A stretch of 41,508 bases of DNA from Bacteroidales bacterium (GTDB lineage: Bacteria; Bacteroidota; Bacteroidia; Bacteroidales; PWNQ01). The position numbers and the translations under genes were made by a program. Within the stretch, counting starts at the first letter, position 1, and every line of letters begins with the position of its first letter. Under the pieces are notes generated by a model that saw only the letters and a list, made by a program, of their open reading frames with translations, was not told the origin of the DNA and did no database searches. This document shows positions 22,750 to 28,422 of the stretch, piece by piece. The stretch is from the NCBI GenBank assembly GCA_003557725.1, contig PWNQ01000171.1, positions 1-41,508 of the forward strand, read 5' to 3'.

Positions 22750-23385
22750 TCAGAAAAACGGATTATGAGCCTTTTCTTCACTGACCGTAGTTGCCGGACC
22801 ATGTCCGGGATATATGGTAAAGCTTCCGGGGAGGGGGAGTATTTTCTCGCGGATGCTCTGAATTAACCGTTCCATATCCCCGGTGGGCAAATCAGCACGC
22901 CCCACGCTTCCGGCAAAAAGAACATCCCCGGAAATGATAAACCCTTCCCTGTGCGCTATCAGGCAAATGCTGCCGTCGGCATGACCAGGAGTATATCTTA
23001 CTTCAAGGGTGTCATCCCCCAACTCAACCATCTGCCCATCTTCAAGCCAGCTCTTTGGAGAAGGACTCTTTACCGGCGGAAAACCCATAAGCATTCCCTG
23101 CTCAGAAGCCGATTGAAGAATGGACAACCCCTCCTTGTGAATCACCGGAGAAAGCCCGTAAACATCAAAAATAAATTGATTCCCTACCATGTGATCCACA
23201 TGACCATGCGTATTGATCAGCATCACAGGGGATAATCCCATTTTTTCCATAAAGTGGGTTAACGCTTGCTGCTCGCCGGGCTCAATGCACGCAGGGTCCA
23301 CAATAATACACTTTCTTGATTCATTAAAAAGGACGTACGTGTTAACTTGCAATGGATTAAACACAAACTGCTCTATAGATATCAT
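22750..23385 (-). CDS. Metallo-beta-lactamase-fold hydrolase (glyoxalase II-like)
   Basis: The 211-residue protein has the metal-binding motif THGHVDH (His60, His62, Asp64, His65), a further His in TPGHADGS, Asp in SGDVLFAGSVGR and His in YPGHGP. This is the YcbL/hydroxyacylglutathione hydrolase-like pattern; the substrate may be a thioester but is not proven. The upstream in-frame start at 23415 adds ten basic/Cys residues unlike the family, so MISIEQF at 23385 is preferred. The promoter (23438-23470) takes its -33 element from a copy of the dispersed repeat. Confidence 0.88.
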   Translation of the reverse strand: MISIEQFVFNPLQVNTYVLFNESRKCIIVDPACIEPGEQQALTHFMEKMGLSPVMLINTHGHVDHMVGNQFIFDVYGLSPVIHKEGLSILQSASEQGMLMGFPPVKSPSPKSWLEDGQMVELGDDTLEVRYTPGHADGSICLIAHREGFIISGDVLFAGSVGRADLPTGDMERLIQSIREKILPLPGSFTIYPGHGPATTVSEEKAHNPFF

Positions 23386-23437
23386 ATGAAACCTGGATTT
23401 ATTATTACACCACAAACCTGCTTATGATTTGCCCGTG

Positions 23438-23470: not shown

Positions 23471-23519
23471 AAACTTGTTGCACCCGCTGAAAATCAAAAG
23501 CACCCTTTTTTGAACAGCC
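23453..23519 (+). repeat. 68-bp repeat family, copy 5 (diverged)
   Basis: It contains CCGGTATAATACAAAAAAC at the left, the strongly conserved core CCGCTGAAAATCAAAAG (23484-23500) and CCCTTTTTTGAACAGCCT at the right. The terminal inverted repeats are largely lost. The remnant lipoprotein frame from the left neighbour ends inside it. Confidence 0.6.
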
Positions 23520-23645
23520 TCGGTATCATCTCTTGCGTTTGACAATCAACAATTACAAGTTCTCTATATAAATCGGATTGCGCTTTACAACTCGTAAAGA
23601 ATAGCGAACTAAAGAAAGATAAAAAATATATACTCCCTTATTCAT
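23494..23645 (-). pseudogene. Remnant of a lipoprotein gene downstream of the RHS tip
   Basis: The ATG at 23643-23645 begins MNKGVYIF. A second frame then continues LSFFSSLFFTSCKAQSDL and on through YRELVIVDCQTQEMIP, so a shift of one base in the T6 run (complement of 23621-23626) is needed to join them. Joined, they give a lipoprotein signal peptide with lipobox FTSC and about 30 mature residues. The frame then runs into repeat copy 5 and stops at 23494-23496, so the rest of the gene seems to have been replaced. Its place right behind an RHS C-terminus is where immunity genes usually lie; that role is inference. Confidence 0.5.
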
Positions 23646-23757
23646 TTATATGGGGTATCCGATCTATACCCGTAACTTTTATTATAAATCTGATAATCAA
23701 TGATTTTTTTAAAATTTGCATATTCTGTAATTTGTTTATTTTCATCACATTATGTAT

Positions 23758-24540
23758 TTAACGGGAGATGATCAGATACCCCATTTCATTTATTATTCTT
23801 TCGTTTTCTTGAAAACCTTTCATCATTCCATTTATATCAGACGCATTAGGCATTTCTTTACCCCCGCCAATTCCTTCGGTCGCTCCATACATTATCATAG
23901 TAGAGTGTGTGGAAAATTTCGTGCAGCTTAGTTAAAACATTACCCCTTGACCTTTCAGGAATGTTTATATGTTGCAAAGTAGCGTCTGTTATACCCATTA
24001 GTTGATTATAGTTATCTTGATTAAATCCATTCGGACCAACTTCCACAAAATAAACTGCCCTAATTGTTACTGTCTGATTACTGTGATTTACTGAAGCAAT
24101 ACCTTCTTTCCCATCAGGGTCTAAAAAGTAGATGGGATTGTTATTAAAAGCGGAATAAGGGCTTTGGTGTGGATATTTAGCAGTAGCTGGGTCTATGTTC
24201 CAACGCCTGCCAGTTCTTGGGTCATATCCATAATCTACGAAAGATATGTGATTACCAGCCCCTTTAACTTCGTCATCCTTCTCAAAACTCATAAACCCAT
24301 ACCTGTATGACTCTGAGTCATATTCCCCTTCCACCAGCACCATCCCAAAAGGATAATACTCCGCGGAAGAAGACACCACGCTATGGTAACCGGTGATGTT
24401 ATCACTTGCATCCCCGGTCACGCTCCGGTAATCCGATAGCACCAAATGCACGTTGCCCAAATGGTTGGCTGATTTCAAAGAACGTACCGTTGCGCGTGGT
24501 AGCAAAAATAAGCATATTTTCATTAGCCGGTAAATGCAAT
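23758..24540 (-). pseudogene. Decayed RHS-repeat protein C-terminus with HEXXH tip domain
   Basis: The main open segment (23858-24550) contains the RHS core: NHLGNVHLVLSD, AEYYPFGM, YRYGFMSFEKDDE, YDPRTGRRWNIDPATAKYP and SPYSAFNNNPIYFLDPDGKEG. After the core comes a variable tip with HEIFH (23909-23923), a zincin-type motif, in TKLHEIFHTLYYDN. Two further shifts are visible. Upstream, another frame reads FATTRNGTFFEIS and joins NHLGNV if one C is removed near 24467. Downstream, a G5 run near 23861-23865 stops the frame; with one G fewer it continues KEMPNASDINGMMKGFQENE to a stop at 23758. Nothing of the long N-terminal RHS/YD-repeat region remains, so the gene is a truncated relic. Confidence 0.75.
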
Positions 24541-25064
24541 TATCCACCACGGGTGAAATCGCAGAATCCCAATGTTAGAAAGCATTTGAAATGCGACCCG
24601 AGATGAAATTTCCGATGGGTGGAATACGTGGTAATGGCCAATTTCAATTACACCAGATAATCACGGTGGGGATACATCCCATCCGGTTAACCAATGACAA
24701 TTGATACGGAATACGGTTTGGAACGTGATTATGGAATGTGATTACGGGGCTTCGGTTTAATCAGGGCCTGCATTTGTTTTTCTTTTCTGCACATAATATT
24801 TTTTGGAAACAAAAAACAGGCATTTTTTAACGCCAGGCAAGACGCTCAATGCCGAAGGGATACTTTTCCCCGGTACAAATCTAAACTGTTTTCAAAACTG
24901 CGACATCAAATTCTGCGACGGGTCAGGAGTTCTGAAATTAGTGTTTTTTACACTAACCGAGTCCTAACCATTACCGGGCTAACACAATACACTTCCTAAA
25001 AATAAAAAACTAAACCATTTTATTCCAAACCAACTTTTATCCAAATTGTTTCCCTATAAAATTT
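24541..25064. other. Gene-free region between RHS relic and the propeller-barrel gene
   Basis: No coding region is supported. A 7-base perfect hairpin TTAGTGT-TTTTT-ACACTAA is at 24938-24956. The stretch 24600-24700 has a loosely palindromic look (GTGGTAATGG ... CAATTACACCA) and may be a mobile-element or RHS-locus remnant that I cannot identify. Confidence 0.5.
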
Positions 25065-25116: not shown

Positions 25117-28100
25117 ATGGGAGGATATTTGAGAAATACAGACTTTCGTTTTTTTTTCGCCATTTTACTTTTTTCCCCGTGGTCATTGGTTCACGGGCAG
25201 TTTTATAATGGTTCTCAGGTAACCTTTGGAAAAAACCGGGTTCAGTATCAGGAGGATCGGCTTTGGCACTACTACAGTTTTGAAAAGTTTAACACCTATC
25301 ACTACCGTGGCGGGAGGAATCTGGCGGTATATGCTTCCCGGTATGCAGACCAGCAGATCAACAGGGTTTCAGATTTGCTGGATCACACCCTCCACAGCAA
25401 GGTACATTTTATTGTTTTCAACAACCTTAACGATTTAAAGGAAAGCAATATAGGCCTTATCAGCGATGAGCAATACAATGTTGGTGGCATTACCCATTTG
25501 GTAGGAAACAAGGTATTTCTTTATTTTGAGGGGGACTTGCGTGCTTTCGAGCAACAAATTCGCAAGGGCATTGCCCACGTGATCATCAACCAGATGCTCA
25601 CCGGAGAAGATGTGGCCAGTGCGGTAAAAAGCTCTACCCTGGTTTCCCTTCCGGACTGGTATTTGAATGGATTGATCTCATATCTGTCCGATCCCTGGAG
25701 CATAGATTCCGATAACCGGGTGAGAGACGGCATATTAAGTGGGCGATATAAGGATTTTTATGCGTTAAAAGGCGAGGAGGCCACCATGGCCGGCCATTCC
25801 ATTTGGAAATATATTGCCGATAGTTATGGACACCAGTCCATCCCTGGTCTTATTTACATGACAAAAGCCGCCCGAAATATTGAAAGTGCCTTTTTATTGA
25901 TCCTGGGTTCTTCATATAACCGCCTTTTGGAAGACTGGTATGACTATTATTATGCTATTTACAGCGAGGATCAGAAGTTTTTCACGGAGATTAAAGGAGA
26001 GGTGATACAACCCCGCATTAGAAAAAAGTTTCAATATTATAATCCATCCATCAGTCCTGACGGCACCCATTTAGTTTACTCCCGGAACAGGCTGGGCAAG
26101 CTTCAGGTGTATCTAAAAAACCTGGAAACCGGTGACCACGAAAGGGTTTTTCGCCAGGGACATAAAATGGACCAGGTAGTAGACTACTCCTATCCGGTGA
26201 TCGCCTGGCACCCCAGCGGCAAAATATTTCGCCTCATTGTGGAACAAAGAGGCGAGATCATAATGTATCTATATGATATTGAAGAGGGCATAATAGAACG
26301 CCAGCAGTTATATCAACTGGGAAAGGTGTTGGATGCATCCTATAACCACCGGGGTTCTAATCTGGTATTATCCGCTGTGAAAGAAGGGCAGACCGACCTG
26401 TTTGTGTATCATCTGGCATCGGAAAGTCTGGAACAGATCACCAATGACATTTTTGATGTATGGAACCCCCGCTTCATTAATGACTCTCGCCATATTGTAT
26501 TTAGCTCAAACCGTACCACAGACACCCTGCGTGATGTGAGGCTGGATTTCCGGCAAAGGGGCCAGATGGACACCTCGGTAATCTCCCCGTATGCTACTAT
26601 TTTTATTTACAACTATTCCGAAGAAAATCGTGTTCTTCAGAGGCTTAACAATACTCCACGGATTAATGAGACCCATCCAGAGCCATATTTTGATGGTCAA
26701 ATCACCTATTTGAGTGATAAAAATGGCATTGTAAACCGTTATGTAGCCCGGTTTGACAGCGCTATCAGCCATGTGGACACTGCTGTCCATTACAATTATT
26801 ATACCGAGAGCTACCCAGTGACCAACTATAGCCGGAGCATTCTGGACCATGATGTGAGTCTGTCTTCCGGGCATATTGCAGAGCATATTTTACATGAAGG
26901 ATACCACAAGTTGTTTCTGCGTTCCGCCGAAGCCCTGGACTCCATCCCTCAGCGCGAAATCTACAATACTCTATATAAAAATCAGTTAGTTAGTCAGGCC
27001 CGCATGTCCCCTCCAGCTCCGCAGGAGCAGGAGGGTCCTGCTGCGGATAGCCCTCCTGTAAAGCAATTTACCCCCTTAAAGCACAGCCACAGGGATACTG
27101 TTTCTGCATCTGAGGAAACGGATAAAGTGGATATTCATCATTATACTTTTGAACAGGAGCCCGGCACAGCGGATACTTCTGGTTCCGGGGAGGCAACAGA
27201 AAAGCCCTGGTCACCTCCGGCCCGGCAGAACTATTATGTGGAATACAGCATAAACAAGCTGGTGAGTCAGATTGATTTTTCATTTATGAATGAGTCTTAT
27301 CAGCCATTTACCGGAGGGGGTGCTCCCATATTTTTAAATGCAGGTTTTGGAGCGCTAATTATGGTAGGGGCCACGGATATGATGGAAGATTACCGGCTCA
27401 CCGGGGGTGTACGTTTATCGTCCAGTTTGCGGAATAATGAGTATATGATCAGCTATGAAAACCTGAAAAACCGGGTTAATCACCAATGGATTTTTCATCG
27501 CAAGCCTTACGAGAATACCAGGGAGATGCTTATTCAGCGCATTGCTTCCCATAACATATACTATCGTGCCACCTATCCTTTCAATCAGGTTTTTTCCATT
27601 CGAATGACTGGTTCTGTGCGTTATGACCGGGCCACAATCCTGGCAACCGATTTCTTCACCCTTCAGGCGCCGGATGAATATTACACCTGGGGAGGCCTTA
27701 AGGCTGAGCTGATCTTTGATAACACGCGTGACCGGGGGATAAATACGCTTTTCGGCACCCGGTGGAAAGTATTTAGCGAGTACTATCAGCTTTATGATCC
27801 GGAGCGGGAGAATGTGAACCTTATTGTTACCGGTCTGGATTTCAGAAACTACATACCTATTCACCGTTCTTTTGTCTGGGCCAACCGTTTGGCTGCATCC
27901 CACAGCTTTGGCACCTCCCGGCTTATCTATTATATGGGAGGGGTTGACAACTGGTTGCTACCCCGCTTCAACCAGAGCACGCCCATAGATCATTCTCAAA
28001 ATTATGCTTATCAGACCCTGGCAACACCCATGCGAGGGTTTGAACAAAATATTCGCAATGGAAACTCTTTTGCCCTGTTCAACTCGGAACTGCGCCTGCC

Positions 28101-28422
28101 GCTGGTGCGGTACTTTTCCAGAAAGCCATTACGATCAGACTTTTTAAGCAGCTTACAGTTGGTGGGATTTTTTGATGCAGGCTCGGCCTGGACCGGTCTA
28201 AATCCCTACAGTGAAGAGAACACCATCATAGAGGAAGAGTATGTTAGCAAGCCCTATAAGGTTACGTTGCGTCGCAAAGTGGAACCCTTTGTGGCAGGAA
28301 CAGGATTTGGATTGAGAGCCAAGATATTTGGATATTTTGTGAGGGCAGATTATGCCTGGGGGATACGGGAAGGAGTGGTTCAGGACCCCAGGTTTTACCT
28401 TTCTTTGAACCTGGATTTTTAG
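25117..28422 (+). CDS. Pseudo-peptidase / beta-propeller / outer-membrane barrel fusion protein
   Basis: The 1101-residue exported protein has a signal peptide with likely cleavage after LVHG, leaving QFYNG. Residues about 60-295 resemble the peptidase-MA-like (gluzincin) fold, but at the place of HExxH it reads K150-G-I-A-H154, so two of three key residues are lost. Residues about 300-560 hold TolB/WD40-like propeller blades (NPSISPDGTHLVYSR, NPRFINDSRHIVFSSNR). A Pro/Glu/Ser linker (about 625-705) follows. The last 390 residues form a BamA-like barrel (VGFFDAGSAW, FGLRAKIFGYFVRADYAWG) ending in NLDF. Proteins of this build are usually annotated TolB- or BamA-like in Bacteroidota; the function is unknown. 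An M20 amidohydrolase gene follows after 18 bases. Confidence 0.75.
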   Translation: MGGYLRNTDFRFFFAILLFSPWSLVHGQFYNGSQVTFGKNRVQYQEDRLWHYYSFEKFNTYHYRGGRNLAVYASRYADQQINRVSDLLDHTLHSKVHFIVFNNLNDLKESNIGLISDEQYNVGGITHLVGNKVFLYFEGDLRAFEQQIRKGIAHVIINQMLTGEDVASAVKSSTLVSLPDWYLNGLISYLSDPWSIDSDNRVRDGILSGRYKDFYALKGEEATMAGHSIWKYIADSYGHQSIPGLIYMTKAARNIESAFLLILGSSYNRLLEDWYDYYYAIYSEDQKFFTEIKGEVIQPRIRKKFQYYNPSISPDGTHLVYSRNRLGKLQVYLKNLETGDHERVFRQGHKMDQVVDYSYPVIAWHPSGKIFRLIVEQRGEIIMYLYDIEEGIIERQQLYQLGKVLDASYNHRGSNLVLSAVKEGQTDLFVYHLASESLEQITNDIFDVWNPRFINDSRHIVFSSNRTTDTLRDVRLDFRQRGQMDTSVISPYATIFIYNYSEENRVLQRLNNTPRINETHPEPYFDGQITYLSDKNGIVNRYVARFDSAISHVDTAVHYNYYTESYPVTNYSRSILDHDVSLSSGHIAEHILHEGYHKLFLRSAEALDSIPQREIYNTLYKNQLVSQARMSPPAPQEQEGPAADSPPVKQFTPLKHSHRDTVSASEETDKVDIHHYTFEQEPGTADTSGSGEATEKPWSPPARQNYYVEYSINKLVSQIDFSFMNESYQPFTGGGAPIFLNAGFGALIMVGATDMMEDYRLTGGVRLSSSLRNNEYMISYENLKNRVNHQWIFHRKPYENTREMLIQRIASHNIYYRATYPFNQVFSIRMTGSVRYDRATILATDFFTLQAPDEYYTWGGLKAELIFDNTRDRGINTLFGTRWKVFSEYYQLYDPERENVNLIVTGLDFRNYIPIHRSFVWANRLAASHSFGTSRLIYYMGGVDNWLLPRFNQSTPIDHSQNYAYQTLATPMRGFEQNIRNGNSFALFNSELRLPLVRYFSRKPLRSDFLSSLQLVGFFDAGSAWTGLNPYSEENTIIEEEYVSKPYKVTLRRKVEPFVAGTGFGLRAKIFGYFVRADYAWGIREGVVQDPRFYLSLNLDF

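What the first reader, a model, noticed from the sequence alone, without database searches (positions are those of the whole stretch)
23494..24540. Decayed RHS tip with an HEXXH domain and an adjacent lipoprotein remnant
An RHS core (AEYYPFGM, SPYSAFNNNPI, FLDPDGKEG) leads to a tip carrying HEIFH, a zincin-type motif. Just downstream is a remnant lipoprotein frame in the place where an immunity gene is expected. The order (RHS core, variable tip, small exported protein) is that of a polymorphic toxin-immunity module. The HEXXH tip with NWRG/GKEMPNASD following could be an undescribed peptidase toxin.
Basis: partly seen in the sequence, partly recalled or inferred. Interest (0 to 1): 0.6.

Follow-up and report, generated by a model that had tools for sequence, protein, structure and literature searches.

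The report
Dead RHS toxin-tip cassette, metzincin-like
This stretch is the broken remains of a spare end-piece of an RHS bacterial weapon protein whose intact relatives in other Bacteroidota carry a zinc-protease-like tip followed directly by a small exported, probably protective, protein; the copy here is dead, and the general kind of system is already known.

Summary
On the minus strand of this Bacteroidota MAG contig there is a broken RHS 3' fragment: a core remnant (24540-24101), a tip with HEIFH (23923-23909) that continues after a frame change to a stop at 23758, and a broken lipoprotein-like start (23645-23512). NWRG and GKEMPNASD lie in different frames. Direct searches with the tip found no relative. 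Searching with the core plus only the first tip strand pulled in RHS tips that mostly carry HExxHxxGxxH/D. Their profile matches solved metzincins at about 1e-4 and no Pfam or NCBIfam model above cut-off. The window piece beats all 3000 shuffles on that profile, but lacks about 70 middle residues and the metzincin Gly and third ligand. All 10 RHS-linked relatives with downstream DNA are followed at -56 to +6 nt by a small exported protein; so are 16/16 other HEXXH tips and 62/84 other tips. A second fragment in the same genome shares leader and core but has another tip, so these are orphan RHS cassettes. RHS zincin toxins are known; this family appears unmodelled. The window copy is a pseudogene.

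The parts
24541..24863 (-). Leader shared with a second RHS fragment in the same genome; begins with a terminator-like stem-loop (24834-24819); no long ORF
   Evidence: blastn 88% over 585 bp to C116 (L008:16147-16728), near-identical through about 24696-24510; same 5' boundary in a third partial copy, C153
24101..24540 (-). RHS core remnant without its N-terminal part; frame broken near 24466
   Evidence: translation, TIGR03696 hit, homology to C116 ORF L002:1324-2466
23891..24100 (-). Tip, first piece: strand TVTIRAVYFVE (24073-24041) to HEIFHTLYYDN
   Evidence: HMM of 12 relatives without the window: 15.6 bits, two colinear matches, 0 of 3000 shuffles as high
23909..23923 (-). HEIFH, the zincin-type motif
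   Evidence: aligned with HExxH of relatives
23758..23886 (-). Tip, second piece in another frame: GATEGIGGGKEMPNASDINGMMKGFQENERIINEMGYLIISR, stop
   Evidence: no significant similarity on its own
23512..23645 (-). Lipoprotein-like start (signal, FFTSC), split over two frames and truncated
   Evidence: no significant relatives; position matches the exported partner gene of relatives

Best explanation
A dead orphan RHS cassette. A shared leader and a truncated RHS core were joined to a variable tip from a metzincin-like metallopeptidase family, with a lipoprotein gene behind it. Shown: the orphan form, the frame breaks, the family similarity, HExxHxxGxxH/D in relatives, and the exported partner directly behind each RHS-linked relative. 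Inferred: in intact relatives the RHS protein delivers the tip to the envelope of a neighbouring bacterium, the zinc site cuts envelope proteins, and the exported or lipid-anchored partner protects the producer in the same compartment. Orphan cassettes serve as spare 3' ends that recombine through the shared core. This copy has lost its frame, about 70 middle residues relative to the family (or derives from a compact version), and most of its partner gene, so it most likely does nothing now.
For: Second cassette with the same leader and core but another tip and exported protein in the same genome. Sister species has a three-cassette array with a repeated 300-nt unit and different tips. The core search ended at VYFVE, before the HEXXH, yet 5 of the 6 examined tips matching into that strand carry HExxH or EExxH in a metzincin-like setting. 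The window piece scores above all 3000 shuffles on the family HMM. The family profile hits alkaline protease, serralysins, ADAM17 and myroilysin in PDB sequences at 6e-5 to 5e-4, and sub-threshold reprolysin/matrixin Pfam models are hit by up to 7 of 13 members. Exported partner in 10/10 metzincin-like and 16/16 other HEXXH tips, against 62/84 other tips, Fisher p 0.0016. Partner type follows tip type: tips 64% and partners 46% identical for L107/L112; 54% and 38% for L113/L114.
Against: No close homologue of this tip. HEIFHTLYYDN lacks the Gly and third His/Asp of metzincins. The second tip piece does not score. The middle gap is unexplained. Fold models are of low confidence. Family members were first chosen because they matched the strand, which biases that part of the score (the HEXXH was not in that query). 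Signal peptides were called with a simple heuristic. No toxicity or immunity data.
Confidence: 0.6

Rival explanations
1. A dead RHS cassette whose tip is an unrelated, undescribed fold; HEIFH is an accident of a helix, not a zinc site.
For: No homologue by direct search; metzincin Gly and third ligand missing; second piece scores no better than shuffles.
Against: Two colinear matches to the family HMM, the second over HEIFHTL, with 0 of 3000 shuffles as high; the strand-only search led to HExxH tips independently.
Confidence: 0.2
2. A compact but natural zincin tip, different from the 200-residue family, that was functional with HEIFH and another third ligand, and decayed later.
For: The stretch between the strand and HEIFH is free of stops; L087 shows that the motif varies naturally (EEIGHNIGFLH).
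Against: No compact relative found in the about 790 genomes searched with the tip or in the genome contigs and viral-contig scans.
Confidence: 0.15
3. Not decayed: the frame breaks are assembly errors in a working cassette.
For: A MAG of 236 contigs; contigs break near RHS repeats.
Against: At least two breaks plus a truncated partner gene within about 1 kb, while long flanking genes (22750-23415, 25117-28422) are open.
Confidence: 0.05

Closest known systems
RHS polymorphic toxins with zincin-like tips, Tox-MPTase1-5 (Zhang et al. 2012, PMC3482391)
   Same: HExxH metallopeptidase domain at the C-terminus of RHS proteins, present in Bacteroidetes
   Different: No member of the family reaches a Tox-MPTase model in Pfam at E 0.1; the paper lists no immunity protein for Tox-MPTase1-5, while here an exported partner follows each RHS-linked member
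Metzincins (serralysin, ADAM17, myroilysin, matrixin)
   Same: Family profile matches around HExxHxxGxxH
   Different: Mostly the catalytic-helix region aligns; all members lie below Pfam cut-offs where these were shown; the window copy itself lacks Gly and third ligand
Orphan rhs cassettes (Salmonella, PMC3967940, PMC7043789; abstracts only were read)
   Same: Truncated core plus tip plus downstream gene, without the delivery part
   Different: Here dispersed with a conserved leader, and dead
Imm65, lipoprotein immunity of Tox-JAB-1 in Bacteroidetes (PMC3482391)
   Same: Lipobox protein directly behind a polymorphic-toxin tip
   Different: Described there as the only lipoprotein immunity protein of the collection; partners here are other proteins, e.g. 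CarboxypepD_reg-like in L112

Membership tests
RHS polymorphic toxin, orphan cassette | RHS-associated core followed by a variable tip | tested here: met
   TIGR03696 25 bits, below cut-off; same core with another tip at C116
RHS polymorphic toxin, orphan cassette | Intact reading frame | tested here: not met
   Frame changes near 24466 and 23890-23860
RHS polymorphic toxin, orphan cassette | Immunity gene directly downstream | tested here: inconclusive
   Only a broken lipoprotein-like start here; exported partner in 10/10 relatives
Metzincin-like RHS tip family (assembled here) | Profile similarity to the family | tested here: met
   15.6 bits, 0 of 3000 shuffles as high, window excluded from the model
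Metzincin clan | HExxHxxGxxH/D | tested here: not met
   HEIFHTLYYDN in the window; met in most relatives
Metzincin clan | Met-turn after the zinc helix | tested here: inconclusive
   GKEMPNASD has a Met in another frame but does not score
Metzincin clan | Zincin fold | tested here: inconclusive
   Fold models of relatives have mean pLDDT 39 and 32
Tox-MPTase families in Pfam | Match to the model | tested here: not met
   None of 13 members at E 0.1
RHS polymorphic toxin, orphan cassette | Toxicity and its neutralisation by the partner | not testable with these tools
   Needs experiments

The most novel reading that the evidence does not exclude
The relic belongs to an unmodelled family of metzincin-type RHS tips in Bacteroidota that act in the envelope and are each paired with a tip-specific exported or lipid-anchored immunity protein, moved around as orphan cassettes with a conserved leader.
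Probability: 0.4. Interest if true: 0.5.

Novelty: new member of a known kind. Interest (0 to 1): 0.3.

Why it matters
The window copy is a pseudogene and matters little alone. It points to intact Bacteroidota RHS tips with a metzincin-like zinc site and a strictly adjacent exported partner. That is a testable toxin and immunity pairing outside the cytoplasm; the 2012 survey of polymorphic toxins lists no immunity protein for its zincin tips, and the family found here has no Pfam or NCBIfam model above cut-off.

Tried and rejected
Direct tip searches: own family, 393 order and 395 phylum genomes, viral contigs, genome contigs, phages, plasmids; the weak hits that I translated are MglA-type GTPases, other proteins or short frames, hence chance. 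Pfam on the tip: nothing. Lipoprotein start: no Pfam hit, and genome hits look like chance; a resemblance to CarboxypepD_reg starts (V.D..T...IP), as in the partners of L107/L112, is a lead only. Fold models too poor for a fold search. A Pfam scan of the other HEXXH tips failed on coordinates and was not repeated. The two broken tip frames were not joined or mended for any search.

Full report
Setting. The window is the whole contig C232 of a 2.82 Mb, 236-contig MAG whose relatives are Bacteroidota (named relatives of the tip family are Bacteroidales and Bacteroidota MAGs). The finding lies in the gap between a metallo-beta-lactamase-fold gene (22750-23415, minus) and a long plus-strand gene with a PD40 propeller repeat (25117-28422).

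Observation. On the minus strand, reading from 24863 down: a leader without a long ORF (24863-24541), an RHS core remnant (24540-24101), a tip piece up to HEIFHTLYYDN (24100-23891), a second tip piece in another frame ending at the stop 23760-23758, and a lipoprotein-like start split over two frames (23645-23512). NWRG is read in the first frame, ending in a stop, and GKEMPNASD in the second, so they are not one continuous reading. The core is also out of frame near 24466 relative to its paralogue.

An orphan cassette. The same genome has a second RHS fragment at C116 with the same leader and core (88% over 585 bp, with a nearly identical leader block at about 24696-24510) and a wholly different tip, followed by a FISUMP-domain protein. 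A third partial leader copy at a contig edge starts at the same base. The sister species G001 has a three-cassette array with a repeated 300-nt unit and different tips. Short RHS ORFs in arrays are common in this order. So a truncated core with a variable tip is the usual form here.

The tip family. Direct searches with the tip found nothing (checks in 33). A search with core plus only the first tip strand, stopping before the HEXXH, returned many RHS ends. Among the examined tips that matched into that strand, L082, L084, L093 and L103 carry HExxH, L087 has EEIGHNIGFLH, and L102 has none in a stretch that ends near the contig end. Iterating gave L107 (two tips), L109, L110 (not RHS-linked), L111 and L114. 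Most share HExxHxxGxxH/D. Their profile matches alkaline protease, serralysins, ADAM17 and myroilysin in PDB sequences at 6e-5 to 5e-4; the window piece was one of the 13 rows of that profile. Members give only weak, mostly sub-threshold Pfam and NCBIfam metzincin hits. I conclude that they are metzincin-like, an inference from sequence. The fold models are too poor to confirm it.

Does the window tip belong? Against an HMM of the 12 relatives without the window, the first tip piece scores 15.6 bits with two colinear matches (strand, then HEIFHTL) and 0 of 3000 shuffles reach it. The second piece scores no better than shuffles. About 70 model positions between the two matches are absent. The metzincin Gly and third ligand are absent in HEIFHTLYYDN. 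So this is a probable, degenerate member.

The partner. All 10 RHS-linked members with downstream DNA are followed at -56 to +6 nt by an exported small protein. The wider control: metzincin-like 10/10, other HEXXH 16/16, other tips 62/84; HEXXH of both kinds against the rest, Fisher p 0.0016. The arrangement is therefore general here and complete for HEXXH tips. Signal calls are heuristic and sequences are related, so p is indicative only. Tip and partner relatedness go together in L107/L112 (64% and 46%) and L113/L114 (54% and 38%), other partner pairs being unrelated at E 1e-3. The L112 partner is a lipoprotein with a CarboxypepD_reg-like domain. The window remnant sits where this gene would be but cannot be assigned.

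Mechanism and novelty. By analogy with RHS toxins, intact members would cut envelope proteins of neighbours, with immunity in the same compartment; this is not shown. Zincin RHS tips (Tox-MPTase1-5, no immunity listed) and one lipoprotein immunity protein (Imm65) were described in PMC3482391. Six library searches found no paper on a metzincin RHS tip, but the library is incomplete. The window copy is a pseudogene, a new member of a known kind; the intact family is worth an experiment.

Noticed in passing
L002:1324-2466 and L008:17692-19419 (G000:C116): Second orphan RHS fragment of the same genome, tip with HELLGH and HEYAH, followed by a FISUMP/PKD protein; appears open.
   Followed up: partly
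window 24863-24541; L008:16147-16480; L013:10-120: Leader is more conserved between the two cassettes than the core behind it, and starts at the same base in three copies; begins with a terminator-like stem-loop. Short pieces of it recur elsewhere in the genus (L014, L010, L012, L090:5070-5096).
   Followed up: partly
window 23639-23673 and 23761-23795: Inverted repeat, 35 nt, 71% complementary, flanking the gap between tip end and lipoprotein start.
   Followed up: no
L087:3429-4070 (minus): RHS tip of the same family with EEIGHNIGFLH in place of HExxH, in an open frame with an exported partner: possibly an inactive or altered member.
   Followed up: no
L110:1480-2139: Relative of the tip family outside an RHS gene, HEYGHTLGLEH, in another family of the same class.
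   Followed up: no
L004:3-761: RHS tip with Toxin-JAB1 (Pfam 9e-12) in the same genome, followed by an exported protein.
   Followed up: no
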